NCBI GenBank assembly: GCA_028706295.1
Contig: JAQWBQ010000043.1
Location: forward strand, 1 to 32,961
DNA from: Bacteroidales bacterium
Lineage (GTDB): Bacteria > Bacteroidota > Bacteroidia > Bacteroidales > FEN-979
Direction: 5' to 3'
Length of the DNA: 32,961 nucleotides
Shown: one piece after another, positions 2,294 through 32,851 of the stretch
Numbering within the stretch: position 1 is the first letter of the stretch
Layout of the letters: the number at the start of each line of letters is the position of its first letter
Notes under the pieces: generated by a model
Told to the model about the DNA's origin: nothing
Database searches by the model: none
Seen by the model: only the letters and a program-made list of their open reading frames with translations
Position numbers and translations under genes: made by a program

Positions 2294-2316
2294 GAATTCA
2301 TTGTTTTACTAGGGAT

Positions 2317-2617
2317 CAAAGCTCAAAGCTCAAAGCTCAAGCCGTTTCAGGGTTTGAGGGTTTGAGGGTTTCAGAGTTTCAGGGTTTCAGAGTTTCAGAG
2401 TTTCAGAGTTTCAGGGTTTCAGGGTTTCAGGGCACTGAGCCTGTCGAAGTGCCCAACGTTTCAGGGTTTTAAAGTTCAAATCAGGCAATAGGCAATAGGC
2501 AATAGGTAGTAGGCAATAGGGGAAAAAACAATAATTATAAATTTTCACATTCTCAAATCCTCACATTCTCAAATCGTTTTCCGTTTTCCATTTTCCATTT
2601 TCAATTGTCAATTGTCC
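2317..2617. repeat. Chain of 7- and 8-base drifting repeats filling a convergent intergenic gap
   Basis: Almost all of the gap between the AbiEii stop and the stop of the next gene is repeat. It holds three CAAAGCT units (2317-2337), eleven in-phase octamers of TTTCAGGG type (2345-2432), a 26-base interruption, a further TTTCAGGG, five heptamers of CAATAGG type (2486-2520), an AT-rich block with CACATTCTCAAAT repeats, and six heptamers at 2576-2617 that drift from GTTTTCC through ATTTTCC and ATTTTCA to ATTGTCA and ATTGTCC. The last units run into the coding sequence of the gene ending at 2608 and contain its stop codon. Confidence 0.9.
2430..2454. repeat. Small palindromic element interrupting the octamer array
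   Basis: GGGCACT and AGTGCCC form a perfect 7-bp inverted repeat around GAGCCTGTCGA. The element sits inside the TTTCAGGG array, which stops at 2432 and resumes at 2459. The core resembles REP-like palindromes seen in many bacterial genomes, from memory and not from a search. Confidence 0.6.
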
Positions 2618-5600
2618 TTCACGCATCGTACGGGGAACGCATCGGCTTTCGATCCTTCATAGAACGACACGCTGGGATTCACGTCGTTAAGACCACGTGC
2701 AACGGCCCGTCCGGCAGTTATCACAGTAGAGGTCCAGAAAAAAGAGGCATTAAAAGCCTGGCCTGAAAAGGCCTCGAGGGAATTAAGGTAAAACACTCCG
2801 GCAGGACCTGCTTTAAAAAGCCCCGTGGTATTGACATCACGAAGATATGAACCTGCAATGCCGTCACCCGGCGTGAGCGAAGAGATGGCATTGATCAGCA
2901 CAGCCCATTCGGCATCATCGGGGACATGCCATCCCGGCGGGCAGAATCCCTGGCCTTTAGTGGCCGTGGTGTATTGCATAAGTTCATCCCACTGGTACAT
3001 TCCACCGTACAGCGAGCAGGTGGGATCGGTAGAAAGGCAGTATTTTTCCCAGACACAATTGTCGGTTTGTGGCGAAAGGTGCGAGATGGCCGGATTTGCG
3101 GTGTGGTAACGAAGGTTTTCCTGCATCCAGCATTTACCCCCGATCATCACGGTTTTATAAACCTGGTTATCGCGCGGATCGGTGAGGAGGCTTCCGCATG
3201 AAAAGCCTGCATTGGAGGCATCAACGCGAAGGATTTTGGAATCGGATGCGATGCATCCGTTGTTGTCGGTGTAGGTGTAATAAATCGTGTGGTTGCTGGT
3301 GCTTAACGCTGACGGTGTGATGGTCGTGACAGGTGAGCCGCTGAGGTTATCAACCCTGAAAACTCCGGAACTACCCAACGGCAATCCTCCTTTCAGAACA
3401 AAGGGTTTGGCGTTCTGGGTGGTAACGGCATCAAAACAGATTTGAAGTTGTGTTTTTGGTTTCGGATTGATGACCACGGTCATCGGGAGTGAGGTCAGGC
3501 TGCAAAGCGGGGGAGCGCCGGTGGTGGTTGCGGTCACCCTGAGCTGTGCCGATTGTGCCGACGTCCCGGGCAACTTCCAGGTTACGGATAAGGGGTTTGC
3601 CGTTGGATCGGCCATCACACCCAGCGTTGGCGGGGTGATCTGCCACAGGTAGGTTGATGCAGGTCCGCCGGCATCGACGGTAAACAGCGAAGGCGTTGGA
3701 TAATCCTGACAAACCGGCGACGGTGTTGAAGTCGTAAAGGTCGCCACAGGTAAAGGATGAATTGTTACGGGTTGGTTGGTGATATTGGAACAACCCAGCG
3801 AATTGGTGTAGCTTACCGAAACGGTTTGGTTGGCTGTCGCTGTGGTCATCCAGTTGATCAGAACGGAGTTGTTGGTGGCAGGACCCGAAATGATACCACC
3901 CGATGAAACACTCCACGCATAGATGCTCAACCCGGCGGGAATGGAGTAGGAAACACCGGTGGTTCCGGCGCAGACTGTCTGGTCGCCGGTTACAGTATAA
4001 CTCGGCGAAGCATTGACATTTACGATCCGACGTTCGGGAGTGACCGCGGTGCATCCGTTACCATTGATGTAGTTGACCTCAACCCATTCTGAACTTCCGA
4101 TTACATTCCAGGTCACCGAAGCTGAATTACCGCTGGCAACCAGGGTATTACCGGGAGAAACATTCCATACATACCCGGTCATTCCGGATTCAGTGGTATA
4201 GGTATATGTTTTTTGATAGCATACGTTATTGTTCCCGGCAACGGTCGGTACGGGTAAGGAATTCACGGTAACCTGATAGTTGGCGGGAATGGTCTGGCAG
4301 CCGTTGGGATCGGTATAGATCACCGAAATGGTTTTCACACCGGTGGTGTTCCAGGTGATCGACCGGGTCTCGGGGGTGGCGCCCGTGATGATGCCGTCAG
4401 GACTTACCGACCATTGGTAAGAGGAGGGCACCATTCCACCGTCGGTGCTGTAACTCTGCGCGACTCCGATGCATGCGGTGGCGCTGCCGAAAAGGTTCGG
4501 AGTGATCAACCCCTGGACTACAACGCTTTTCTGATCGCTGCTGGTGCATCCGTTCAGGTCGGTGTAGGTGTAAGTGATGGTATGTACGCCGACACCCATC
4601 GTTGCCGGATTGAAGGTAGTGATGGGGTTGCCCTGGTAAAGGTAAGTACCCCCCGCGGGAGTCCCTGTCGAAAGGGTGAAAGCCGGGGTGTTGAGGCATA
4701 CCGGGGCAAAGGGCGGAAGTACGACATCCGGAAGTTGAAATACAGTCACTGCGTAATTTACCGGATCGCCGGCACAGCCGCCATAAGTCGGGGTGATGGT
4801 GTAAATGACCGATCCCGGGAGGGTATTGGTTCCCAGGATCAGGGTATTGCTGATTGGAGAAGTAGTTCCGGAAGTCGGACAGGTTTGTATGTTGTTGCAG
4901 TTACCCGGAAGCACTTCCCAGTTCCAGCTCAGCGACGGGCCGGTGAGCCCCGACTGAAGCAAGACGTTGGTGCTGCCGCCGGAGCAGAAGCTTTCACCGG
5001 AGGTTGACGGGGAGGTGACATTCGGCTTGGGCGCCACGGTGACCACAATCGTTTTAGTGGCCCCGGTACAGATCCCTGCCGAAGGAGTCACATGATAAAC
5101 CACAGTGCCGGGATTCAAATCCGTGACCGAGAGATTGCCATTGATCGACGCGCCGCTGAAGGTCCCGGTAGGACAGGTGGTAATGTTTGAACTGCAGTCG
5201 CCTGCCCCCACACTCCATGAATAAGTAGTTCCTGCCACGGGTGACGACAACGAGATGCTGAATGGTACACCTGCACAGGTGTTCTGCGATACGTTGGTTG
5301 TCAACACAGGAACAGGTAGCAGGGTTATGGGAACAGAGGATGTCGGACCTGTTTCCGCGCAGTTTGTGTTGGTTCCGTATACACTTAAAGTTCCTGACAG
5401 CGCACCGGCCCCGAATGACAGGGTGACAGAATTACTGCCTGGCGTTGATTGATTAATGGAAACGCCTGTTGGTGGGTCATAGCTCCAATGATAAACGTCG
5501 GTATTGAGATCCGGATTCACCGAGAACAACACCCCGGATGAATTTTCACAAAAAATGTAAGGCGCAGATTGGTTTATTACCAATGGCTGGGGATTTCGGA

Positions 5601-11097: not shown

Positions 11098-11258
11098 GAG
11101 TATCCGAGTTCCGGTTGATGCCGTAAAATTAAGGAAAATTCGCTTTGCTAATCGTTTCGGGTTGGTTTTCGGAAACGGATGCTTCGGTTGTCTGTTTTTT
11201 TTTATAAACTTTGTAATCGGAAACCATAGAATATCCAGCCTTCTCAAAAATATATACC

Positions 11259-13103
11259 ATGCGAAAGGAATCAGATTTTTTAGGCTCAATGCAGATTCCG
11301 GAAGAAGCCTTATACGGCATTCATTCCCTGAGGGCAAGGAATAATTTTCCCGACCGGACCCCTTTTCATGCTGAATGGTATCGGGCTCTCGGGTTGGTCA
11401 AAAAGGCTTGTTATCTGACTGCCCGGGACTATTTTGAGGCGATGATCAGAAAGTATTTTGGACAAACGGCCGAGCAGACGAAGAGCGGACGAAAAGCGGA
11501 CGAAGAGTTGGACGAAGAGTTGGACCATCAGAAGAATGTTAACAGTCTCCACGGCACCATGGCACCACGGCACCATGGAACAAGCGGACCGGCGGACGAG
11601 GAGAAGAATCTTATCAGTCGCCACGGCACCACGGCACCACGGCACCATGGAACAAGCGGACAGGTGGACGAGCGGCGGGGAGGGTTTAGTTTGGACAAGC
11701 TCCGTAAACAGAAGGAGACTTTAAATCTGTTGATCGCGGCTGCATCAGAAATGGCAGAGGGGCGGTATTTTGAACATTTTATTGTTCCGGCGGTCTCCGG
11801 GGGTGCGGGGACCAGCATCAACATGAACATCAATGAGATTCTTGCCAATGCGGGGTTGATAAAAGCCGGCACAGAGCCCGGAAACTATCAGCGGATCGAT
11901 CCCATCGAAGATGCCAACATTTTTCAATCGACCAATGATGTGATTCCGACGGCCCTCAGGGTCTCGGCCATGTTCCTGCTTGGCGATCTGGAGAAGGCCA
12001 TCAATGAATTGCAGTTCGGAATCGAACAACATGAGACCCTCCATCAGAACGACCTGCGTACCGGCTTCACCCAGATGCAGGAGGCTGTGCCTTCATCCTT
12101 CGGGAAGTTGTTCAGCACATACAGCGAGGCGCTTTCGCGCGACTGGTGGCGGGTGTCAAAGTGTTTTGAACGGATCAAACTGGTGAATCTCGGCGGAGGA
12201 GCCATCGGAACCGGGCTGAGCGTGCCCCGTTATTTCATCATGGAGGTGGTTTCGAACCTGCAAACCCTCACCGCGCTTCCGCTGGCACGCAGCGAAAATC
12301 TTTCCGATGCAACTTCCAACCTCGACGCCTTCGTCGAAGTACATGCCATCCTTAAATCTCATGCCGTGAACCTCGAAAAGATGGTTTCCGACCTCCGACT
12401 TTTAGCCTCCGACCTGGTGAACAGCCATGCGGACAAGTGGACCAGCGAACAGGCGGACCAGCGGACTAGCGGACCAGTTAAATCCTCATACCCTCATACC
12501 CTCTTACCCTCTGACCCTGTAATCCCGGAACGCGAAACGCAAAACGCGAAACTCGAACCGCGAAACGCTAAACGCGAAACCCGTCAGCTGGAAATCCCCC
12601 GCGTACAGGTTGGTAGTTCGATCATGCCGGGAAAGATCAACCCGGTGATCCCGGAATTCGTGATCAGCGCGGTCCATAAGATCTATGCAAATGATCAGGT
12701 CATTACCTCACTTTGTGCCCAGGGATGCCTGGAGCTGAATGCCTACCTGCCTGTAATCGGCCATGCCCTTTTAGAAAGCCTGAAACTGCTCATCGCCTGT
12801 GATCAGACACTGAAAAAGAACCTTTTCGACGGACTGGCCATCCATCCTGCGATAAGCCGTGAAATGTTGTTCCGGAGCCCCGCCGTGACAACGGCCCTGA
12901 TCCCGTTGATCGGCTATAATAAAGCCGCGGAACTGGCAAAATACATGTTAACGCAGGGAAGTGACATCTTTTCGGCAAACCATGACCTTCAATGCGTGAC
13001 AGAGGAGCGGCTACACCAGTTGCTGCTTCCCGAGAACCTGCTGAAACTCGGGTACACGCTCAGCGATTTGGAGAAAGAAGGGGAGGAGAATGAAAAAAGT
13101 TAA
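11259..13103 (+). CDS. aspA: Aspartate ammonia-lyase-like enzyme with two repeat-derived insertions
   Basis: A fumarate lyase superfamily member that would reversibly convert aspartate to fumarate and ammonia. Seen are IPEEALYGIHSLRARNNF (residues about 13-30), GGAGTSINMNINE, QSTNDVIPTALR, GGGAIGTGL and the signature loop GSSIMPGKINPV (about 453-464). It has 614 residues, whereas aspartases have about 470. The excess lies in two low-complexity stretches, about residues 70-142 (with HGTMAPRHHGTSG and a near copy) and about 390-442, both coded by 7-, 8- and 11-base repeats. Without them about 490 residues remain. The frame stays open throughout. The gene diverges from the secreted protein on its left and converges with the glycosyltransferase on its right. 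Aspartase is the likeliest member of the superfamily; whether the enlarged protein is active is unknown. Confidence 0.82.
   Translation: MRKESDFLGSMQIPEEALYGIHSLRARNNFPDRTPFHAEWYRALGLVKKACYLTARDYFEAMIRKYFGQTAEQTKSGRKADEELDEELDHQKNVNSLHGTMAPRHHGTSGPADEEKNLISRHGTTAPRHHGTSGQVDERRGGFSLDKLRKQKETLNLLIAAASEMAEGRYFEHFIVPAVSGGAGTSINMNINEILANAGLIKAGTEPGNYQRIDPIEDANIFQSTNDVIPTALRVSAMFLLGDLEKAINELQFGIEQHETLHQNDLRTGFTQMQEAVPSSFGKLFSTYSEALSRDWWRVSKCFERIKLVNLGGGAIGTGLSVPRYFIMEVVSNLQTLTALPLARSENLSDATSNLDAFVEVHAILKSHAVNLEKMVSDLRLLASDLVNSHADKWTSEQADQRTSGPVKSSYPHTLLPSDPVIPERETQNAKLEPRNAKRETRQLEIPRVQVGSSIMPGKINPVIPEFVISAVHKIYANDQVITSLCAQGCLELNAYLPVIGHALLESLKLLIACDQTLKKNLFDGLAIHPAISREMLFRSPAVTTALIPLIGYNKAAELAKYMLTQGSDIFSANHDLQCVTEERLHQLLLPENLLKLGYTLSDLEKEGEENEKS
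11466..11685 (+). repeat. In-frame repeat insertion 1 in the aspartase gene
   Basis: About 220 bp of tandem units: four 11-base units of GCGGACGAAGA type from 11474, then two longer blocks (about 71 bp apart, near 11550 and 11621) made of CACCATGG/CACCACGG octamers followed by AACAAGCGGAC. They encode Arg/His/Thr/Gly-rich peptide not expected in a fumarate lyase. Confidence 0.85.
12425..12580 (+). repeat. In-frame repeat insertion 2 in the aspartase gene
   Basis: Three repeat families lie side by side: octamers GCGGACCA, GCGGACTA, GCGGACCA (12453-12476); octamers CCTCATAC twice, CCTCTTAC, CCTCTGAC (12484-12515); and seven in-phase heptamers of GCGAAAC type (12532-12580). The same GCGGACCA-GCGGACTA pair starts the intergenic chain at 32788. 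Confidence 0.88.
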
Positions 13104-13226
13104 AGCTCAAGGCTCAAAGTTTAAAGTTCACATTCTCAAATCCTCAAATTTTCAAACCAGCATTCACTCCTTCGTAATTCTAAAATCTTGTCAATCGTAA
13201 ATCTTGTCAATCGTAAATCAATTTGT
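13103..13226. repeat. Heptamer/octamer chain between two convergent genes
   Basis: Starts inside the TAA stop of the aspartase gene: heptamers AAGCTCA, AGGCTCA, AAGTTTA, AAGTTCA (13103-13130), octamers CATTCTCA, AATCCTCA, AATTTTCA, AACCAGCA (13131-13162), then two identical 16-base units AATCTTGTCAATCGTA (13184-13215) and the partial unit AATCAATTTGT, ending 9 bases before the stop of the glycosyltransferase gene. Confidence 0.85.
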
Positions 13227-13234
13227 CCGCTCTT

Positions 13235-15328
13235 CTAGTAAACCCTCCTGTACAGTCCGTAGATAACAGGATTCCCTGATCTTACCTTGATGGTAAATTG
13301 ATCTAAAAGATAAGGCGTTTTCATCGGGTTCCACACGAAGGCCTTGAGGAGCAATCCGTGGTGGCGCAGTTCGATGTCGCATAGCCGGAGTGAAATGTAG
13401 GCGCGTCCCTGTTGCCCCGGCTTTAAATAGTCGGCCACTGCCACCGATTTCCAAAAAACTTCTTTGCCGTTTGCCGTCACCGACATAACCAGCCACGCCC
13501 CCGGGAATACTTCTGGAAGCCGCAGGTCGACTGACATGTCGATCACGTCGTCGGGACTCCGCATCAGGTCGCGAATCGGCATGGAAAAGGTAGGACTGAA
13601 TTCGTCGCCTTCCCGGACCAGAAAACTGTATTTTCCTTCAATAGGCAGCGAATCGGTGATCTGGTCCTGATCGATCCATCCCCATTCGGGCGGAGCGGGT
13701 TCGAAGTTGTTTGTGAGGGTGTAAAAATATTCTTCAGGCGGAGGCCCCAGCTTTCCGTCATTTTGAAACTGGCCTTTGCGTGAGGGGTTGGCAGGATTCA
13801 TCCGGGAATCCCTTTTGGAAGGCAGGTTATAATCACTGCCGGCATTTATCTTGTGAAGCTGTCTCCTCTGCTGGGCACTATCACCATTCAGCCGGGGATC
13901 ATTTTTGGAAAACAGGTAAAAATCCCCGCCGGCGTAAGTCCTGTGAACCTCAAGAATGGGGAAGCGGGAACGAATTAAAGCATAGTTTTCCCATGGTGCA
14001 GTCGAGAGGCATCCGTAAACCAGGCAGGGCCGCTTGCAAGAGTCGAGCAGCGAAAGTAGTTTTCCCCGGGTTCCGGCCGAATCGGCGTACAGGAACGGTA
14101 GGTCGCGGCAACCCGGTTTTTCAAGATAGTACGGATTGATCTCCCGGCGGGTGTCGAGAATTACCAGACAATTCGCGGCTCCCAGTGAGTCGACGGCTTT
14201 TTTTGCTTCCACGACCATTTCCCGGTAGGGGGATTTGTAAAAAAGATCATAATGACGTCTTTCAAAGATCAGCGACGGGATCACAATCGCCGCAATCAAC
14301 GTCACCAATACTGCCTGATGTAACGGCTTTTCGGTTTTGAAAAGGGAGAAGGGGATGAACAACAGGTAGGGGAAGGAAAAGATGAGCACCGAATATTGTA
14401 AAACGGAACTTCTGAAGGTGGAATATAGGTAGCCGATAAGGAAGGGCAGCAGGAACCACGTTGCAGAGATCAATACAAACCGGATCCGGATCTTCGGTCG
14501 ATCGGAATACCAATATAATGACAAACTGACGAGCAGGAAGATCAACAGGTAGAGGAACACCGAAAAATGGAAAATGTACTGGATGAAGTCGGTGATGAAA
14601 TCGAACCTCGGCTTCCGGAGCCACCCTTCGATACCGCCCACACCGAGCTGGTAAAAAAAGATAGGCAGGTGGGGAAGGTAAAGCACAATGACCATGGCAC
14701 ACGCGACCAGGTATGGCAGCAGCCTCTTGCGGTTACAAAGAAACAGTCCGGTGATCCCAACCATTGCGGCAAACAGCATGCTGAAGTGGTGGTTATAAGC
14801 GCACAGGGCGCCGGCTACCGTGAATCCTGCCAGGTTCAGCAAAAATTTCCGTTCGGGGCGGAACAATACCCGGGTCCAGAACCAGACCAGTAAAAGTGTA
14901 AAGAACAATCCGCTGGAATAGGGACGCGCAATCTGACTGTACATCACCGGGAACTGCAGGAAGGAGACGAAGGCCGCTGAGGTAAGTCCTACTGTGGAAT
15001 TGAACCACTCTTTCCCGATCAGGTAAACCATCCAGACTGAAAGAAGTCCGAAGAGGATGAAGGGAAGTTTCAAAGCGATGACCGACACACCAAACCATTT
15101 GATCAGCAGCCAGATGAAGATCTGTACGCCGGCCGGGTGACCGTCGATCTTCACTCCTTTCTCAATCAGGTCGCCGAAGGTGCCGTACTGTGCCCGGATG
15201 ATGGCGGAAAACTCATCGTGTGTGAACGGGATGTCGGGGAGCCGGTACAGGCGTAGCGCTGCTCCGGCCAGTAAAATCAATATGATCAGGATGTGATCAA
15301 TCTGAAACCGGTTCCTCGAATTCAGCAT
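13235..15328 (-). CDS. GT39-type (PMT/ArnT-like) membrane glycosyltransferase
   Basis: A 697-residue polytopic membrane protein. The first transmembrane helix (ILIILILLAGAALRLY) is followed by IPFTHDEFS, with the acidic pair D38/E39 expected in the first periplasmic loop of GT-C enzymes that use lipid-linked sugar donors. Many further hydrophobic segments extend to about residue 350. After that comes a soluble C-terminal region of about 330 residues. It contains a diverged duplication (VHRTYAGGDFYLFSKNDPRLN and LHKINAGSDYNLPSKRDSRMN) and ends in a beta-rich part with no recognised family. The ATG at 15328 directly precedes the hydrophobic N-terminus. Likely role: transfer of a sugar to a lipid, glycan or protein at the periplasmic face. 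Donor and acceptor cannot be told from sequence. It converges with the aspartase gene. Confidence 0.8.
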   Translation of the reverse strand: MLNSRNRFQIDHILIILILLAGAALRLYRLPDIPFTHDEFSAIIRAQYGTFGDLIEKGVKIDGHPAGVQIFIWLLIKWFGVSVIALKLPFILFGLLSVWMVYLIGKEWFNSTVGLTSAAFVSFLQFPVMYSQIARPYSSGLFFTLLLVWFWTRVLFRPERKFLLNLAGFTVAGALCAYNHHFSMLFAAMVGITGLFLCNRKRLLPYLVACAMVIVLYLPHLPIFFYQLGVGGIEGWLRKPRFDFITDFIQYIFHFSVFLYLLIFLLVSLSLYWYSDRPKIRIRFVLISATWFLLPFLIGYLYSTFRSSVLQYSVLIFSFPYLLFIPFSLFKTEKPLHQAVLVTLIAAIVIPSLIFERRHYDLFYKSPYREMVVEAKKAVDSLGAANCLVILDTRREINPYYLEKPGCRDLPFLYADSAGTRGKLLSLLDSCKRPCLVYGCLSTAPWENYALIRSRFPILEVHRTYAGGDFYLFSKNDPRLNGDSAQQRRQLHKINAGSDYNLPSKRDSRMNPANPSRKGQFQNDGKLGPPPEEYFYTLTNNFEPAPPEWGWIDQDQITDSLPIEGKYSFLVREGDEFSPTFSMPIRDLMRSPDDVIDMSVDLRLPEVFPGAWLVMSVTANGKEVFWKSVAVADYLKPGQQGRAYISLRLCDIELRHHGLLLKAFVWNPMKTPYLLDQFTIKVRSGNPVIYGLYRRVY
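13801..13951 (-). repeat. Diverged internal duplication in the glycosyltransferase gene
   Basis: Two stretches of about 59 bp, beginning near 13801 and 13893, share CCGGGRATC, TTTTTGGAA, CAGGT, CGCCGGC and CCTGTGAA-like blocks. They encode related 21-residue peptides lying about 30 residues apart. Confidence 0.65.
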
Positions 15329-19682: not shown

Positions 19683-20867
19683 AAACATAAACCTTCAGGC
19701 TTCAATTCGAAGCTCGTCCACGGGGCCGGTCCGAAGGACCCCCTGGGAAGCGTAATCACCCCCATCTACCAGACCTCGACCTTCGCCTTCGAGTCGGCCG
19801 ACCATGGCGCTGCCTGTTTTGCAGGTGAAAGCGATGGATTTATCTACACCCGGATCGGAAATCCGACCATCCGCGATCTGGAAAAGACCATTGCAGAACT
19901 GGAACATGGATTCGACGGGATCGGGTGCTCCTCCGGTATGGGAGCAGTTAATACGGTTTACATGGCTTACCTGGGCGCAGGGAAACATATTCTCAGCCAC
20001 AATGCCGTTTACGGACCATCACGCGGGATCATCGAGAATACTTTTTCCCGGTTCGGAGTGGCATCGACTTATGTGGATACCACCGATCTGAAACAGGTTG
20101 AAAATGCCATCCGGCCGGATACTGCGTTGATCTACCTGGAGACCCCGGCCAATCCGACGATCGGAATCTCCGATATCCCGGCCATTTGCGAACTGGCCCA
20201 CCGGCACAACATCCCGGTATGCGTCGACAATACCTTCTGCAGCCCCTACCTTCAGAATCCGCTCGACATGGGCGCCGACGTGGTGCTTCATTCCCTTACA
20301 AAATTTTTAAACGGTCATGCCGACATCGTGGGCGGAATAATCGTCACTAAAAATGAAACCGATTACAAAAAGGTGCGTCAGATGATGGTGACGCTGGGAT
20401 GCAACATGGATCCCCACCAGGCATTCCTGACCCGCCGCGGATTGAAAACATTGGCACTTCGTATCGACCGGGCTCAGGAAAATGCCATGAAAGTGGCTAC
20501 TTTCCTCGAAAATCATCCCAATGTCGCGTGGGTTATGTATCCCGGTCTGAAATCGCATCCGCAGTATGAACTCGGGAAAAAAATGATGCGGGGACCCGGG
20601 GCGATGATGAGTTTTGGTCTGAAGGGCGGATTGCCGGCCGGAAAACGGCTCATGAACGAGGTTAAGCTTTGTGTCCTTGCAGTTTCGCTCGGCGGTATCG
20701 AAACCCTGATCCAGCACCCGGCATCGATGACCCACAGCAAACTCTCGGCAGCAGCCAAAAAAGAGGGTGGCATCAGCGACGAACTCGTAAGGCTGTCGGT
20801 CGGAATTGAAGAGGCGGAGGATATCGTCGCTGATCTGGAACAGGCGTTGCAGAAAATTGACAATTGA
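19680..20867 (+). CDS. Trans-sulfuration-family PLP enzyme (methionine gamma-lyase or cystathionine gamma-lyase/synthase type)
   Basis: A 395-residue Cys/Met-metabolism PLP enzyme, normal family length and cytosolic. Seen are YTRIGNPT (residues 56-63), CSSGMGAV (83-90), the PLP-contacting Tyr111, ETPANPT, D183 in VCVDNTF, and the Schiff-base K208 in HSLTKFLNGHADIVGG. Overall wording (GAGKHILSHNAVYG, NGHADIVGG) is closest to methionine gamma-lyases from memory. The residue two after Tyr111 is Pro (YGP), where characterised methionine gamma-lyases have Cys (YGC), so substrate preference is open. Reaction: elimination or replacement at the gamma carbon of sulfur amino acids. A leader motif shared with the amidase gene precedes it. 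The last codons (Ile-Asp-Asn-stop) lie in a heptamer chain. Confidence 0.9.
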   Translation: MKHKPSGFNSKLVHGAGPKDPLGSVITPIYQTSTFAFESADHGAACFAGESDGFIYTRIGNPTIRDLEKTIAELEHGFDGIGCSSGMGAVNTVYMAYLGAGKHILSHNAVYGPSRGIIENTFSRFGVASTYVDTTDLKQVENAIRPDTALIYLETPANPTIGISDIPAICELAHRHNIPVCVDNTFCSPYLQNPLDMGADVVLHSLTKFLNGHADIVGGIIVTKNETDYKKVRQMMVTLGCNMDPHQAFLTRRGLKTLALRIDRAQENAMKVATFLENHPNVAWVMYPGLKSHPQYELGKKMMRGPGAMMSFGLKGGLPAGKRLMNEVKLCVLAVSLGGIETLIQHPASMTHSKLSAAAKKEGGISDELVRLSVGIEEAEDIVADLEQALQKIDN

Positions 20868-20904
20868 CAATGGACAATTGAAAACCAAAAACGGACAATT
20901 GAAG
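20856..20904. repeat. Seven in-phase heptamers over the stop codon of the PLP-enzyme gene
   Basis: ATTGACA, ATTGACA, ATGGACA, ATTGAAA, ACCAAAA, ACGGACA, ATTGAAG. The first two units encode the last residues and the TGA stop at 20865-20867. Confidence 0.85.
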
Positions 20905-20967
20905 ATTGATATTGTTGGGTTGATCAGTGTTCTGCGATGGAAGGGAGGCATTTTTCCGGGTAAAGAT

Positions 20968-21001: not shown

Positions 21002-23311
21002 GTGAGAAACATCCTACGATACCTTACCATCATTTTTTTTATAATTGTCATTTGTCAATTATCATTTGTCAATTATTCTCATGCGCAGAAGGTGGGTGTA
21101 GTTCTCAGTGGCGGGGCTGCAAAGGGGGGTGCGCATATCGGGGTTCTCAAAGCCCTCGAAGAACAGGGGATCCCGATCGATTATATAGCCGGCACTTCGA
21201 TCGGGGCTATTGTCGGGGCTATGTACGCCAGCGGCTATACGCTGAAGGAAATTGAGGATCTCATGAGTTCCCAGGAGTTCCAGCGTTGGGCCACGGGAGT
21301 GACCGATGAAGATTATACCTACTATTTCTGGAAGGAGGATCCCAATGCCTCCTGGGTTTCAACCAACTTCAATTTCAAAAAGAAGCTTACCGCCCTGTTG
21401 CCCACCCACCTGATCAATACTTTTGACATCGACTTTCATTTGATGCACATCTTTTCGCAGGCGGGAGCCGTTTGCAAAGGGAATTTCGATAGCCTGATGG
21501 TACCGTTTCGTTGTGTGGTCGCCGACATCGACTCAACCAAGCCGTTGATTCTGCAACAGGGCGACCTGAGCGCTGCGGTACGCGGTTCGATGAGCATCCC
21601 GCTGGTGTTCAATCCGATAGTGCTTGATAACCGACTGGTTTTTGACGGCGGCATGTATAACAATTTTCCCTGCGATGTCATGTTCAGCAATTTTCATCCC
21701 GATGTGATCATCGGGAGCCGGGTGGCTCAACGGTACAAGAAACCCGACCGGGATGATGTTGTTTCACAGATTCTCTCCATGCTGATGGAAAACCAAAGCG
21801 ATACAATCCGGTATCCCGGATCGGTAATGATCACCCCCGATATCCCGGTCATCAGTGCGCTCGATTTTTCACGTACCCGTGAACTTTCCGACAGCGGGTA
21901 CAAAGCCGCCATGAGAAAAATTCCCGAGATCAGAAAGTATGTCCGCGATTCCGTTTCAACTGAAAACATGCAGCGTAAAAGGGCTTCCTTCAATGCCGAT
22001 AAACCCGCGATACGGTTTGACTCGATTCACGTAACCGGCATGAATAAAACGCAGGAACGGTACATCCGGCAGATCCTGAAACACGGAGAACCAACGGTGA
22101 CGCTGGAAGAACTCAAACACGAATATTTCAGGTTCGTGAGCGAAGGTTTTATCCAGAATATTTTCCCCGTTGCACGGTATAACCCCACCACCGGCTTTTT
22201 CGATCTTTACCTGGATATCAGGAAGGCTGATAATTTCGGTGCCGCGTTCGGAGGGAATTTCTCCCTTGCCAACACCAGCGAGGCCTTCCTGCAAATCGAT
22301 TATAAATATCTTTGGACGAAAGGACTCCGTTTTTATATGAACGGCTATTTCGGACGGATCTACAGCGCGGCAAAACTGGGCGGTCGCATCGATTTTAATT
22401 CAAAGGTTCCCTGGTTCATTGAGGCCGCTTACACGTACAACCATTTTAACTTTTTCATGAGCACCAGTTTCTTTTTCGATGACAAGACTCCGAATTACAT
22501 CATCGAAGGCGAGTATTTCGGTGATGTCAGGATCGGGATACCTGCCACTGCCAACGGGAAAGTAATGGCGGGGTTTACCGATGCTTATACCAACAAAAAA
22601 TATTATCAGAGTAATATTTTTTCACGCACTGATACTGCAGATCAGACCACTTTTCGGTTTATCTCACCCTCCATTACTTTCGACCTGAACAGCCTCAATC
22701 GTAAACAGTATCCCTCAGCCGGAGTCCGGTTGATGATCGACCTTGGCTACTTCAATGGGAAAGAGGACATGATTCCCGGGTCCACGGCCAAGAGCAGGAT
22801 TCCGGTGACCCATTTCCGAAGCTGGTTCAGGTTGAGATTTTTGTATGATAACTATTTTGAGACTTTCGGACCCCTGAAACTGGGATTTTACGGCGAGGCG
22901 GTGATCTCGGATCAGCCGCTTTTCTCCAATTATGTCTCCAGTTTGTTGTACGCGAGCGCTTTTCAACCGGTGCCTGAATCCCAGACGTACTTTCTTCCCT
23001 CGTTCCGTGCCCAGAGCTATGCCGCGGCAGGACTGAAGATCGTGCTTCGGGTTTATAAGAAGATCGAATACCGGCTCGAAGGATACATCTTCCAGCCATA
23101 CCGGGAAATCCTTGAGAACCAGGATGACTATACGGCTTACTTCGGACCGCTTTTTGGACGGCGGTCCTATATGGCCTCAACTGCACTGGTCTATCACAGC
23201 CCGATCGGTCCGCTTAGTATCGTAGCCAATTATTTCGATAAATTTCCCGAAACCGTCACCGTCAACTTTAACATCGGGTACCTGATATTTAACAAGAGGG
23301 CTATGCCGTAA
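21002..23311 (+). CDS. Patatin-like phospholipase fused to POTRA-like and Omp85-like beta-barrel (PlpD-type)
   Basis: A 769-residue outer-membrane protein. The GTG at 21002 begins a signal peptide (YLTIIFFIIVICQLSF, then YSHAQ); no upstream ATG stays in frame. The patatin domain (about 30-310) carries the oxyanion loop GGAAKGGAHIG, the nucleophile Ser66 in GTSIG, and the catalytic Asp near 215 in DGGMYNNFP. A POTRA-like segment (about 335-405, starting IRFDSIHVTGMN) leads to a C-terminal 16-strand-type barrel rich in alternating aromatics (FGGNFSLANTSEAFLQIDY onward). This order is that of PlpD/type Vd proteins, whose lipase domain is moved across or displayed on the outer membrane. Residues about 15-26, inside the signal peptide, are coded by a heptamer chain. 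Lipase substrate unknown. Confidence 0.92.
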   Translation: MRNILRYLTIIFFIIVICQLSFVNYSHAQKVGVVLSGGAAKGGAHIGVLKALEEQGIPIDYIAGTSIGAIVGAMYASGYTLKEIEDLMSSQEFQRWATGVTDEDYTYYFWKEDPNASWVSTNFNFKKKLTALLPTHLINTFDIDFHLMHIFSQAGAVCKGNFDSLMVPFRCVVADIDSTKPLILQQGDLSAAVRGSMSIPLVFNPIVLDNRLVFDGGMYNNFPCDVMFSNFHPDVIIGSRVAQRYKKPDRDDVVSQILSMLMENQSDTIRYPGSVMITPDIPVISALDFSRTRELSDSGYKAAMRKIPEIRKYVRDSVSTENMQRKRASFNADKPAIRFDSIHVTGMNKTQERYIRQILKHGEPTVTLEELKHEYFRFVSEGFIQNIFPVARYNPTTGFFDLYLDIRKADNFGAAFGGNFSLANTSEAFLQIDYKYLWTKGLRFYMNGYFGRIYSAAKLGGRIDFNSKVPWFIEAAYTYNHFNFFMSTSFFFDDKTPNYIIEGEYFGDVRIGIPATANGKVMAGFTDAYTNKKYYQSNIFSRTDTADQTTFRFISPSITFDLNSLNRKQYPSAGVRLMIDLGYFNGKEDMIPGSTAKSRIPVTHFRSWFRLRFLYDNYFETFGPLKLGFYGEAVISDQPLFSNYVSSLLYASAFQPVPESQTYFLPSFRAQSYAAAGLKIVLRVYKKIEYRLEGYIFQPYREILENQDDYTAYFGPLFGRRSYMASTALVYHSPIGPLSIVANYFDKFPETVTVNFNIGYLIFNKRAMP
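21044..21078 (+). repeat. Heptamer chain inside the patatin signal-peptide codons
   Basis: ATTGTCA, TTTGTCA, ATTATCA, TTTGTCA, ATTATTC are five in-phase heptamers. They are the reverse-complement type of the ATTGACA units just upstream at 20856. Confidence 0.8.
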
Positions 23312-25945: not shown

Positions 25946-27124
25946 ATGTCCGGAAATTCCTTTGGCAAAGCACTGGTGCTGACCACTTTTGGCGAGTCTC
26001 ACGGCGAGGCGGTAGGAGGGATACTCGATGGATTTCCTCCCAACATTGAGATACCCCTCGATTTCATCCAGTCGGAACTCGACCGGCGCAAGCCTGGTGG
26101 CAATTCCGGCGTTTCGTCGCGGGGTGAAACCGACCGTATTGAGATTCTTTCGGGGATCTTTGAGGGTAGGAGTACGGGAGCGCCCATCGCGTTTTTGGTT
26201 CAAAACCGGGATCACCGGAGTGAGGATTACGATGAACTCCGTGAAATTTACCGCCCTTCGCACGCGGATTTTACATGGCAACACAAGTATGGGATACGGG
26301 ATCACCGGGGCGGGGGAAGGGCATCGGCCCGCGAAACCCTGGCACGTGTGGCCGGAGGTGCATTTGCAAAGTTATTGCTCAATTCAGCCGGGATCCGCGT
26401 GATTGCGTCAACCGATCAGATCGGACCCTTTCTGATTATCCGCGAACCATCCGATCCTGCAGCCGGTTTAACCGGTGTATCGACGGGAACCGGAGTTGAC
26501 CAACCCGACCGGGAATTCTCCTTCAGCGAAAATCCCCGGAGTACTTATCCCTCTCCGGAGACCGGCATTCGCACTCCGGTCCGCTATTTACGCTCGGATC
26601 CCGTGGTACAGCATTATCTGGAACAAATGTTTGCGGAGGGCGATTCAACCGGGGCGGTAGTCTTTTGTTCAGTAACCGGCGTTCCTGCCGGTCTTGGCGA
26701 ACCCGTTTTCGACAAACTTCAGGCCGATCTGGCGCAGGCTGTGATGAGCATCAATGCCGCACGTGGATTTGAATACGGATCGGGATTTGACGCGGCATCC
26801 ATGCGGGGATCTGAACATAATGATCCATTCACTTTTAAGGAGGGAAGGATCCGCACCACGACCAATCGTTCGGGTGGGATACAGGGAGGCATTTCAAATG
26901 GAGAGGAGATCTTTTTCAGGGTGGCATTCAAGCCGATCCCTTCCCTGAAGATACCGCAGCAAACCGTCGATAAAGAGGGGCGATCCGTTATCCTTAAAGG
27001 GAGCGGCCGTCACGATGTCTGCGTGATTCCCCGGGTTCTGCCGGTCGTCGAGGCTATGACAGCCCTGGTCATCGCGGATCACCTCATCCGGTACGAAGCA
27101 ACGAAAGCATTAAAGGGAGAATGA
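25946..27124 (+). CDS. aroC: Chorismate synthase
   Basis: Last common step of the shikimate pathway: 5-enolpyruvylshikimate-3-phosphate to chorismate with reduced FMN, in the cytosol. Seen are LTTFGESHG (residues about 12-20), VGGILDGFPP, RRKPGG, SGIFEGRSTGAPIAF, HADFTWQHKYG, RGGGRASARETLARVAGGA and, near the C-terminus, IKGS/LKGSGRHDVCVIPRVLPVVEAM. It has 392 residues, somewhat longer than the usual 350-370. The extra length is mainly a loop around residues 165-205 (GVSTGTGVDQPDREFSFSEN). The start ATG follows an AT-rich stretch without Shine-Dalgarno. The 190-bp gap before it shows no recognisable element. A heptamer chain begins immediately after the TGA stop. Confidence 0.96.
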   Translation: MSGNSFGKALVLTTFGESHGEAVGGILDGFPPNIEIPLDFIQSELDRRKPGGNSGVSSRGETDRIEILSGIFEGRSTGAPIAFLVQNRDHRSEDYDELREIYRPSHADFTWQHKYGIRDHRGGGRASARETLARVAGGAFAKLLLNSAGIRVIASTDQIGPFLIIREPSDPAAGLTGVSTGTGVDQPDREFSFSENPRSTYPSPETGIRTPVRYLRSDPVVQHYLEQMFAEGDSTGAVVFCSVTGVPAGLGEPVFDKLQADLAQAVMSINAARGFEYGSGFDAASMRGSEHNDPFTFKEGRIRTTTNRSGGIQGGISNGEEIFFRVAFKPIPSLKIPQQTVDKEGRSVILKGSGRHDVCVIPRVLPVVEAMTALVIADHLIRYEATKALKGE

Positions 27125-27282
27125 TGGACAATGGACAATGGACAATGTGCTAATGTGCTTATGTGCTGATGTGCTAATTTGAGAATTTGAGAATGTGAAA
27201 ATTTTTAATTGTGGTATCTTCCCCTATTCGCTAATCCCTAATCGCTATTCGCTAATAACTATTAGCTAATTTGAATTTAGAA
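27125..27282. repeat. Stop-to-stop chain of heptamers and octamers
   Basis: The whole gap between the aroC and agmatine deiminase stops is made of in-phase units: TGGACAA three times (27125-27145); octamers TGTGCTAA, TGTGCTTA, TGTGCTGA, TGTGCTAA, TTTGAGAA twice, TGTGAAAA and others (27146-27233); then heptamers ending mostly in CTA (27234-27268), ATTTGAA and TTTAGAA. The last unit contains the agmatine deiminase stop. Confidence 0.88.
27169..27229 (+). repeat. Left arm of a perfect 61-bp inverted repeat around agmatine deiminase
   Basis: Starts ATGTGCTAATTTGAGAA and ends TCTTCCCCTATTC. It is the exact reverse complement of 28409-28469. Similarity continues with interruptions towards the gene on both sides (CGCTATTCGCTAAT, then TTGAATTT-GAATTG). 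Confidence 0.88.
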
Positions 27283-28344
27283 TTGCTTTTCTTGCGCCGG
27301 TTCCTGCTGGGAGAGGCAATGGAAGGAACCGAGACCCCAGATCAGTTCCACCGAATCGATCCCGATGATCGTCCGTCCGGGAAAACATTCCTCTAAAATG
27401 CGCATTGCCTGATCATCTTCTTTACACCGGAAGTTCGGAACAATCAATACCTGGTTCGCGATGTAGAAATTGGCATAGGAGGCAGGTAACCGTTGATCTT
27501 CATAAATGACGGGCTTGGGCATCGGAATTTCCGCGATGTCAAGTTGTTTGCCGTTCAACAGTCGGAACGACTTCAGTGTTTTCAGGTTTTTTTCAAGGAT
27601 GGCATGGTTGACATCTTTTTTATTCGGTTCAACCATGGTGACAACTGCATCTTCACGGATAAAACGGGTGATATCATCAATGTGCCCGTTGGTATCGTCC
27701 CCGTCGATTCCTTCGTCAAGCCAAAGGATCTGATCGACGCCGTAATAATTTTGAAGGTAGGTTTCTATCTCTTCCTGCGACAGGTGTGGATTGCGGTTCT
27801 CGTGCAGGAGGCACTGCGTGGTGGTGAGCAGGGTTCCCCGGCCATTCAGGTCGACCGATCCCCCTTCCATCACGATTCCCGGGTAAAAAACAGGTAGATT
27901 GAGGTAGCGACCGACCAACCCGGGTATCTGCTCATCGAGATCATGATCGTATTTGTTACCCCATGCATTGTAACGCCAGCTCACGATCACCTTTTTCACC
28001 GGAGCATCGGGATTGATGAGAAAAGCAGGACCGTGGTCGCGGCACCAGGCATCGTTGGTGGGATGGATCAGCAGGGTGATGTTTTGCATTGCTACTCCAA
28101 GCTGGTTCAGGTCGCGGTTCACCTTTTCGCGGAGGGCTTCATCCCTGACGTTGATGCAAACGGCTTCGACGCGGGCAAGTTCTCTGATGAACCGGTTGTA
28201 AAAAGGGAAGATCCTTGGGAGTGTTCCGGGCCATGAATAGGAATCGTCGTGCGGGTAACTGAGCCAGGTAGCCCTGTGAGGCGCCCATTCAGCGGGAAAA
28301 AAATATCCCGATTCCCTGGGAGTATTTTGAAGAAGATTGATCAT
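27277..28344 (-). CDS. aguA: Agmatine deiminase
   Basis: Converts agmatine to N-carbamoylputrescine plus ammonia; cytosolic member of the guanidine-modifying superfamily, 355 residues from the ATG at 28344 (a TTG two codons earlier is less likely). Seen are WCRDHGPAF near residues 103-111, WRYNAWGNKYD, MEGGSVDLNGRGTLLTT, TQCLLHENRNPHL and DGDDTNGHIDD. The catalytic Cys343 lies in WGLGSFHCLSQQEP, where most relatives read GGGNIHC, a modest change beside the active site. The partner amidase for the next step lies upstream on the same strand, so the pair makes putrescine from agmatine. The gene is bracketed by a 61-bp perfect inverted repeat and by repeat chains on both sides. Confidence 0.93.
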   Translation of the reverse strand: MINLLQNTPRESGYFFPAEWAPHRATWLSYPHDDSYSWPGTLPRIFPFYNRFIRELARVEAVCINVRDEALREKVNRDLNQLGVAMQNITLLIHPTNDAWCRDHGPAFLINPDAPVKKVIVSWRYNAWGNKYDHDLDEQIPGLVGRYLNLPVFYPGIVMEGGSVDLNGRGTLLTTTQCLLHENRNPHLSQEEIETYLQNYYGVDQILWLDEGIDGDDTNGHIDDITRFIREDAVVTMVEPNKKDVNHAILEKNLKTLKSFRLLNGKQLDIAEIPMPKPVIYEDQRLPASYANFYIANQVLIVPNFRCKEDDQAMRILEECFPGRTIIGIDSVELIWGLGSFHCLSQQEPAQEKQF

Positions 28345-28529
28345 AGTCAAATCAATTCAAAATTCAAATTAGCGAATAGCGATTAGGCAATAGGCAATAG
28401 GGAATAGGGAATAGGGGAAGATACCACAATTAAAAATTTTCACATTCTCAAATTCTCAAATTAGCACATTCTCATTCCCTCAATCCTAAATCTTGGCAAT
28501 CGTAAATCTTGGCAATCGTAAATTAATTT
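28345..28529. repeat. Heptamer/octamer chain between the two agmatine-pathway genes
   Basis: Seven heptamers drift from TTAGCGA to ATAGCGA, TTAGGCA, ATAGGCA, ATAGGGA twice and ATAGGGG (28369-28417). They are followed by 14 in-phase octamers (28418-28529), including ACATTCTC, AAATTCTC, AAATTAGC and the pair ATCTTGGC-AATCGTAA twice. The final octamer covers the amidase stop codon (TAA on the minus strand). Confidence 0.9.
28409..28469 (-). repeat. Right arm of the 61-bp inverted repeat
   Basis: Exact reverse complement of 27169-27229. The core AAGATACCACAATTAAAAA is also recognisable, less perfectly, in the 2486-2575 chain. Confidence 0.88.
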
Positions 28530-32787: not shown

Positions 32788-32851
32788 GCGGACCAGCGGA
32801 CTAATTAATTGACTGATTGACTGATTGACTGATTTATTGAGTGAATGAGTT
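32788..32851. repeat. Octamer chain after the PorE-like gene
   Basis: Eight in-phase octamers: GCGGACCA, GCGGACTA, ATTAATTG, ACTGATTG, ACTGATTG, ACTGATTT, ATTGAGTG, AATGAGTT. The first two equal those in the second aspartase insertion. The last 110 bases of the window show no recognisable gene. Confidence 0.85.

What the first reader, a model, noticed from the sequence alone, without database searches (positions are those of the whole stretch)
27125..28529. Phase-locked 7/8-base repeat chains whose units drift stepwise
Arrays across the window keep an exact 7- or 8-base step while the unit changes by one or two bases at a time, or switches family without losing phase. At 28369-28529, seven heptamers (TTAGCGA to ATAGGGG) are followed by 14 octamers with no phase break. 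At 32788-32851, eight octamers pass from GCGGACCA to ACTGATTG types. Ordinary microsatellites slip with a constant unit; many related but different units in one phase suggest a templated or processive origin. The nearest known analogue is the heptanucleotide STRR arrays of cyanobacteria, which usually keep one unit per array. No linked protein is evident in the window.
Basis: partly seen in the sequence, partly recalled or inferred. Interest (0 to 1): 0.85.

Follow-up and report, generated by a model that had tools for sequence, protein, structure and literature searches.

The report
Fast-rewriting 7/8-base repeats behind genes
Many gaps behind genes in this uncultured bacterium are filled with chains of 7- or 8-letter DNA words that keep their places but are rewritten between close relatives, which looks like DNA being copied between scattered sites and then filtered by the genetic code's stop signals.

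Summary
The repeat chains are real. In the window and about 0.6 Mb more of its genome, periodic segments occur mainly at lags 7 and 8, their multiples, and 4. Chains are built from few word families (heptamers H1-H3, octamers O1-O4, a 16-mer) in a preferred order, mostly oriented with the gene whose stop codon they follow. The close relative G006 (anchors 96.8% identical) usually has chains at the same sites but with other content: median identity 0.65, against 0.97 for chain-free gaps. In 7 of 10 pairs the best match is at another locus. Most genus members sampled have chains, with their own words. Chains just behind a gene carry sense-strand stop codons; distant ones show no bias.

My reading: slippage in 7/8-base steps plus copying between loci, filtered by stop codons. 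Register is kept within a family, not shown between families. No reverse transcriptase or Y1 transposase was detected in G000. Stop-proximal heptamers at conserved sites are known from Xanthomonas. New here: several 7/8 families, ordered modules, species-specific words, wholesale replacement.

The parts
27116..27284 (+). Composite chain behind chorismate synthase (stop at 27124): H1 heptamers (about 27116-27154), O1 octamers (27140-27208), core (27201-27220), H2 heptamers (27222-27261), H3-like tail to 27284; convergent with PAD
   Evidence: 27169-27284 is 91% identical to the inverted copy beginning at 28354
28354..28523 (-). Composite chain between the stop of a carbon-nitrogen hydrolase gene (28523, minus strand) and the start of PAD (28350): on the minus strand X16, O1, core, H2, H3-like
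   Evidence: G006 has H1 then H2-like words at the same site, anchors 97.6% identical
28418..28437 (-). Non-repetitive core between O1 and H2 (minus strand ATTTTTAATTGTGGTATCTT), identical to 27201-27220 (+)
   Evidence: lies in the 61-nt exact match of the two PAD flanks
2308..2620 (-). Composite chain at the 3' end of the minus-strand gene 2608-6972: on the minus strand H1, O1, core, H2, O2, H3
   Evidence: O1 here was found by tandem repeat search and by eye, below the lag-8 threshold
11472..11672 (+). First array inside the aspartase/fumarase-like ORF 11259-13103: 11/12-mers and octamers, stop-free in frame
   Evidence: among 16 relatives aligned only G006 has an insertion of comparable length here (G001 lacks this part)
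12429..12584 (+). Second array inside the same ORF: octamers GCGGACCA and CCTCATAC, then heptamers AACGCGA, stop-free in frame
13104..13225 (-). Composite chain between the convergent genes 11259-13103 (+) and 13235-15328 (-): on the minus strand X16, O1, H3 words; below the lag 7/8 threshold in G000, seen at lag 16 and by similarity
   Evidence: G006 has H1 in place of X16
20850..20909 (+). H1 chain overlapping the stop codon (20867) of a Cys/Met metabolism PLP enzyme gene
32788..32851 (+). O4 to O3 octamer chain starting 5 nt behind the stop (32783) of an OmpA/TPR gene
27277..28350 (-). PAD_porph (Porphyromonas-type peptidyl-arginine deiminase family) gene flanked by two composite chains; used as anchor for comparison

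Best explanation
These are dispersed short-tandem-repeat chains that evolve together as a network. (1) Ordinary replication slippage adds and removes 7- or 8-base units, and point mutation makes the units drift. (2) Chains at different loci share enough sequence to template each other, so ectopic gene conversion or template switching copies modules between loci; this spreads a species' words and their order through its genome and replaces chains wholesale. (3) Purifying selection decides where a chain survives: directly behind a gene it must supply stop codons on the sense strand, inside a gene it must be stop-free in frame, and between divergent genes it is mostly lost. Shown: length differences by whole units, wholesale replacement between relatives, exact non-allelic sharing, orientation, order, stop bias. 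Inferred: that the copying is done by the cell's own recombination or replication enzymes, and that the chains are tolerated rather than needed.
For: Unit-step length differences: at L051:7232 the G006 spacer is 28 nt shorter (four heptamers; remaining units differ too), at L039:7158 14 nt shorter. Drift. Replacement: of 64 orthologous spacers, 10 have chains in both genomes, 2 and 2 in one, 50 in neither; median allelic identity 0.652 (n=13) with chains against 0.967 (n=46) without, p=7e-6. Copying: exact matches of 61 and 73 nt between non-allelic loci; better non-allelic score in 7 of 10 pairs. Orientation by region in tandem spacers: 26 sense, 6 antisense, 1 tie in G000; 16 to 0 in G006. 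Order: 88 of 101 module pairs in G000 (rule made on these data), 26 of 28 in G006. Stop filter: chains starting 0-30 nt behind a stop have 9.4 stops/100 nt sense against 3.4 antisense (22:3, n=27, p=1.6e-4); beyond 100 nt 24:28 (n=53); chain-free control 91:110 (n=261). Density (my sums): 9 arrays in 41 kb of divergent, 42 in 16 kb of convergent, 158 in 98 kb of tandem spacer. MutS is present, so its loss is not the cause (MutL not tested).
Against: Slippage does not explain why 7 and 8 dominate. 6 of 32 untied tandem regions in G000 are antisense. In 3 of 10 pairs the allele is the better match, and best-of-43 favours non-allelic matches. One chain (L033:5215) differs by 16 nt, not a multiple of 7. 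The stop bias could equally mean an active role. G006 and the other close relatives named are metagenome assemblies, so single arrays may be misassembled; syntenic flanks on both sides argue against this as a general cause. More than half of the G000 sample was chosen because it held hits. Spacers of G006 and G000 are partly orthologous, so the G006 tests are not fully independent. No recombination gene was linked to chain density.
Confidence: 0.6

Rival explanations
1. Functional stop traps: chains behind genes are kept because steps of 7 or 8 put stop codons into all three frames, catching ribosomes after read-through, frameshift or loss of the native stop.
For: Sense stops just behind genes about twice the level of chain-free spacers (9.4 against 5.0 per 100 nt), antisense stops below it (3.4 against 5.0). 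The bias is also seen with other species' words: genus set 20:5 of 29 for chains starting within 30 nt, own stop and upstream part included. 7, 8 and 4 are not multiples of 3.
Against: Lags 5 and 10 would serve as well but gave none, lag 11 gave 0 and 3. No significant sense bias at 31-100 nt (23:15, p=0.26) or beyond 100 nt. 50 of 64 compared spacers have no chain in either genome. A passive filter predicts the same pattern. The first words behind a stop include AATGGAC, which holds no stop.
Confidence: 0.15
2. A dispersed non-autonomous mobile element whose body is the ordered chain H1-O1-core-H2-H3-O2, inserted behind genes and then decaying by slippage.
For: Shared core and preferred order; 72 matches to one 177-base query in G000; inverted near-copy around PAD.
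Against: In the ten alignments viewed no clean empty site or target duplication was seen; one presence/absence difference (L031:733) has ragged ends. At shared sites content is exchanged rather than added. Other genus members have quite different words at the same junction. No Y1 transposase detected in G000; other transposase families were not searched. No chain match in the plasmid or phage collections.
Confidence: 0.1
3. A dedicated template-based writer (a reverse transcriptase or telomerase-like enzyme with a short RNA template) adds heptamers and octamers.
For: Unit sizes of 7-8 with small drift, register kept within a family, species-specific words.
Against: No PF00078 match at 1e-8 in G000 although it is chain-rich and 95.6% complete. 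RT matches do not follow chains: G001, G011, G013 and G016 have lag-7/8 segments and no RT match; G005, G010 and G017 have an RT match and no such segment in samples of 7-14 kb, though G017 has an array at the PAD flank. No specific search for a template RNA was made; Rfam found nothing in the window.
Confidence: 0.05
4. Assembly artefact of metagenome short reads.
For: The 13 best-matching named records (L160-L172) are all labelled MAG; repeats are hard to assemble.
Against: Chains at the PAD upstream flank in 15 of 18 loci from separate genomes. Two arrays lie in frame inside one conserved enzyme gene in G000 and G006. Heptamer arrays also occur in records of the named strains Niastella yeongjuensis DSM 17621 and Longitalea luteola SYSU D00799, which are not labelled MAG.
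Confidence: 0.05

Closest known systems
GGGAATC and GGGGA(C/T)T heptamer repeats of Xanthomonas and Nostoc (PMC4692102; passages and Discussion section seen)
   Same: Heptamers, mostly intergenic, close to or overlapping stop codons (mean 28 nt to the 5' neighbouring ORF), strand bias near the stop, under-represented between divergent genes, mostly the same gene pairs in Xcc and Xac with extensive length and sequence variation.
   Different: There G-rich words able to form quadruplexes, with a preference for four units. Here several mostly AT-rich words of 7 and 8, ordered modules, content replaced by other families; a quadruplex pattern in 2 of 130 arrays.
TAACTGA direct repeats of Beggiatoaceae, Cyanobacteria and five Bacteroidetes (PMC4679880; abstract, passages and section 12 seen)
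   Same: Intergenic heptamer repeats; in Gramella and Elizabethkingia other heptamer repeats are present as well; relatives with the same neighbourhood but shorter spacers.
   Different: One fixed word, in BOGUAY mostly just upstream of start codons, with related heptamers rarely repeated; the word 'octamer' does not occur in that text. The doublet TAACTGATAACTGA is absent from the window and G000 sample.
Repeat motifs of the Nostoc trnL intron P6b region (PMC4476775; passages seen)
   Same: Two repeat classes at one site, with several independent replacements of one class by the other.
   Different: One intron stem-loop; not a genome-wide network.
Tandem repeats of archaeal Borg elements (PMC9879509; passages seen)
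   Same: Fast-evolving repeats in spacers and ORFs, making new repetitive peptides.
   Different: Borg units are perfect copies and in-ORF units are divisible by three. Here units drift and in-ORF units include 7 and 8.
Long simple sequence repeats with excess heptanucleotides (Mrazek 2007; not read, known through PMC4679880 and PMC4692102)
   Same: Excess of 7-base units, explained there by the length of DNA contacting the polymerase and slippage.
   Different: The passages seen mention no ordered families, species words or copying between loci.

Membership tests
Heptanucleotide long simple sequence repeats / STRR | Tandem units of 7 nt in excess over shuffled sequence, mainly intergenic | tested here: met
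   Lag 7 in excess; 11 of 130 arrays inside called genes
   Units drift and families change within a chain; octamers about as common as heptamers in G000
Xanthomonas-type stop-proximal heptamers | Close to the upstream stop, strand-biased near it, rare between divergent genes | tested here: met
   nearer to the stop than to the next start in 47 of 75 (G000), 18 of 33 (G006) and 27 of 50 (genus) tandem arrays, so the closeness is moderate
Xanthomonas-type stop-proximal heptamers | G-rich unit able to form a quadruplex | tested here: not met
   G3+N1-7 pattern on either strand in 2 of 130 arrays
TAACTGA repeats | The word TAACTGA in direct repeats | tested here: not met
   0 doublets in 642,303 bases of window and G000 sample, both strands; a related word stands behind PAD in G003
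REP elements with Y1 transposase (RAYT) | A Y1 transposase gene in the genome | tested here: not met
   0 matches to PF01797 in G000 at 1e-8
Reverse-transcriptase-written repeats | A reverse transcriptase in the genome | tested here: not met
   0 matches to PF00078 in G000 at 1e-8; genome 95.6% complete, so a missed gene is possible
Borg-type tandem repeats | Perfect units; in-ORF units divisible by three | tested here: not met
Intrinsic terminators | GC-rich hairpin followed by a T run | tested here: inconclusive
   Home-made scan of convergent spacers of 30 nt or more: hairpin in 2 of 21 with chains, 7 of 53 without

The most novel reading that the evidence does not exclude
A genome-wide, actively rewritten network of 3'-end arrays: a mechanism with a fixed 7-8 nt step writes and overwrites chains at conserved sites using a species-specific set of words, and the chains serve as all-frame stop traps, so that word set and step size are under selection together.
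Probability: 0.12. Interest if true: 0.9.

Novelty: new variant of a known kind. Interest (0 to 1): 0.6.

Why it matters
The excess of heptamer repeats in bacteria has been noted for years without an agreed cause or a view of how the repeats change. This genus offers a natural series: the same gene junctions, many species, different words, and one pair at about 97% identity where replacement can be seen. It makes testable whether short repeats spread by copying between loci, how fast, and whether reading-frame and stop-codon constraints alone can create orientation and order. It also warns that ordered, oriented, stop-proximal repeats can look like regulatory elements without being any.

Tried and rejected
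Mobile element: no clean insertion in the ten alignments viewed, no chain match in plasmids (its three hits are deiminase coding sequence) or phages. Known RNA: no Rfam match in the window. Loss of MutS: MutS is intact in G000; its linker is longer in G000 and G006 than in the three relatives aligned, but no array was detected there. Terminators: underpowered. The first drift test was set aside because lag detection itself favours similar neighbours; there 20 of 147 arrays were order-correlated at p<0.05 (my sum). One search uses order-free windows; the octamers of other genus members show no decay with distance. The first aspA DNA alignment was useless because the G006 locus is on the other strand; the protein alignment replaced it.

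Dropped rows and weak points: L062 and L064 are all N and were left out of gene-based counts (39 of 41 sources used). L107 was not parsed. G009 gave no aspA frame. In one search, 5 of 64 region pairs with a spacer under 30 nt were dropped; the chain-free set ranges from 0.03 to 1.0, so some of its mappings are poor. The row L044:312 is a truncated mapping and gets no weight. Three of the in-gene arrays (L068:9684, L150:4303, L150:6326) carry the label H1 but read as ATGCAAA-type words by eye, so the label is wrong there. Loci L260-L271 were fetched and not read. An earlier count said 14 of 16 genus members and another said 8 of 10 non-allelic; the correct counts are 13 of 16 and 7 of 10. These corrections did not move my odds.

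Full report
WHAT WAS CHECKED. The window is contig C81 of a 3.99 Mb, 149-contig genome, G000. Array criterion: at least 19 of 24 matches at a given lag. In the window, lags 7 and 8 give 8 segments each. In the hit-independent sample they give 13 and 8; lag 4 gives 5, lag 12 gives 6, lag 6 gives 2, lag 9 gives 1, and 2, 3, 5, 10 and 11 give none. At 21 arrays in 244 kb the genome would hold roughly 340.

WHAT THEY ARE. Read out in phase, most arrays fall into few families. Heptamers: H1 (AATGGAC, AATTGAC, AACGGAA), H2 (CTAATCG, CTATTCG, CTAATCC, CTATTGC), H3 (TTTGAAC, TTTGAGC). Octamers: O1 (TGTGCTAA, TTTGAGAA, TGTGAAAA), O2 (CCTGAAAC), O3 (TGACTGAT), O4 (GCGGACCA), and a 16-mer X16 (ATTTACGATTGCCAAG). 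The labels are mine, made on the window and sample. Within a family the subtypes keep one register (O1 70 of 70 pairs over three comparisons, H1 28 of 33, H2 35 of 36 and 2 of 2); between families they do not do so regularly.

WHERE THEY SIT. Genes were called with a simple hexamer model, which misses some starts. In tandem spacers H1, H2, H3, O1 and O2 arrays are sense 62 times and antisense 11 times in G000 (my sum) and 27 to 1 in G006 (my sum). By region: 26 sense, 6 antisense and 1 tie in G000; 16 to 0 in G006. The order O4, H1, O1, H2, H3, O2 holds for 88 of 101 module pairs in G000, where the rule was made, and for 26 of 28 in G006; 18 of 24 and 10 of 12 multi-module regions are fully ordered. 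G006 regions are partly orthologous to those of G000, so the second test is not fully independent. Densities (my sums over three sets): divergent 9 in 41 kb, tandem 158 in 98 kb, convergent 42 in 16 kb.

STOP CODONS. Independently of family names, arrays that start 0-30 nt behind a stop (the gene's own stop excluded) have 9.4 stop triplets per 100 nt on the sense strand and 3.4 on the antisense strand (22 against 3, n=27, p=1.6e-4). Arrays starting upstream of the stop give 26 against 4 (n=35), but there the definition of the gene end itself favours stops. At 31-100 nt the count is 23 against 15 (n=41, p=0.26), beyond 100 nt 24 against 28 (n=53), and in the first 50 nt of chain-free tandem spacers 91 against 110 (n=261). 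Inside called genes, H3 and O3 arrays lie in the stop-free orientation and give peptides such as FKVQSSKLKIQN and QSINQSVNQS. The aspartase-like gene 11259-13103 holds two arrays in frame. Among the 16 relatives aligned only G006 has comparable insertions, with altered content; several others have short extra residues in the second loop, VTRH for instance, that fit their own heptamer words (the link to words is my reading).

TURNOVER. G006 is the nearest relative found (same genus; anchors 96.8% identical). Of 309 G000 spacers tested, 64 could be placed in the G006 sample. Fifty have no array in either genome, 10 in both, 2 and 2 in one. Allelic identity over the alignment is 0.652 (median, n=13) with arrays and 0.967 (n=46) without (p=7e-6). 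At 28344-28522 G000 has X16-O1-core-H2 and G006 has H1-H2; even the last codons of the upstream gene differ. Two spacers differ in length by 28 and 14 nt, four and two heptamers; a third differs by 16 nt. In 7 of 10 pairs the G006 array matches a non-allelic G000 array better than its allele, in 3 the allele is better. Exact matches of 61 nt (the two PAD flanks, core included) and 73 nt (two different contigs) are shared between loci.

THE GENUS. At the upstream flank of PAD, 15 of 18 loci (G000 and G006 among them) carry arrays; three (L103, L104, L106) have none. Words differ by species: CTATTGC in G008, AATATCG/AATAATG in G002, ATGACGA in G013, TGAAATGG in G014, AATCGTA in G018 (in L091, L092 and L102 the upstream gene differs or is missing). 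In samples of 5-20 kb, 13 of 16 other genus members have lag 7 or 8 segments, G002 only a T-rich one. Of four outgroups in the order, two have one such segment each and two none. The H1 word GACAATKGACAATKGACAATKGA occurs in 12 of 395 genomes of the phylum (43 hits in G000, 19 in G377 of another family) and the O1 word in 3 of 395. Records of the named strains Longitalea luteola and Niastella yeongjuensis also hold heptamer arrays.

MECHANISM. MutS is present. No reverse transcriptase and no Y1 transposase were detected in G000. The simplest account is slippage plus ectopic copying by normal enzymes, filtered by reading frame and stop codons. Why the step is 7 or 8 remains open; the polymerase-contact idea is from Mrazek 2007, which I know only through PMC4679880 and PMC4692102.

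PRIOR ART. The Xanthomonas study (PMC4692102; passages and Discussion seen) already reports stop-proximal heptamers, rarity between divergent genes, and shared sites with variable content. MacGregor (PMC4679880; abstract, passages, section 12 seen) reports mixed heptamer repeats in Bacteroidetes spacers. Replacement of one repeat class by another is reported for the Nostoc trnL intron (PMC4476775; passages seen). Nine searches listed no paper whose title or abstract start describes ordered 7/8 modules with species words; only open-access text was searched, with few terms, and most listed papers were not opened.

Noticed in passing
L160 (SACF01000043.1): The record title says Alphaproteobacteria, but the contig encodes a deiminase 97% identical to that of the window and has the length of G006 contig C323, which is syntenic with the window; the label looks wrong.
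   Followed up: partly
window 11259-13103: An aspartase/fumarase-like enzyme gene carries two stop-free repeat insertions; whether the enzyme still works is unknown.
   Followed up: partly
L244 (G007) and L164, L168, L169: Some relatives have 9-base arrays such as GGTTAACCT, a step that preserves reading frame.
   Followed up: no
window 21043-21076: A 14-base repeat of H1-like words lies near the possible N-terminus of a patatin-like gene and could encode part of a signal peptide; the start codon is uncertain.
   Followed up: no
L272, L273 compared with L274-L276: MutS of G000 and G006 has a longer linker near the C-terminus than three relatives, without a detected array.
   Followed up: no
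window 2608-6972 and 7114-11337: Two adjacent very long genes with PKD-like repeats and Fib_succ_major domains.
   Followed up: no
G153: The reversed control pattern of H1 has 28 matches in this genome, suggesting another species-specific heptamer word.
   Followed up: no
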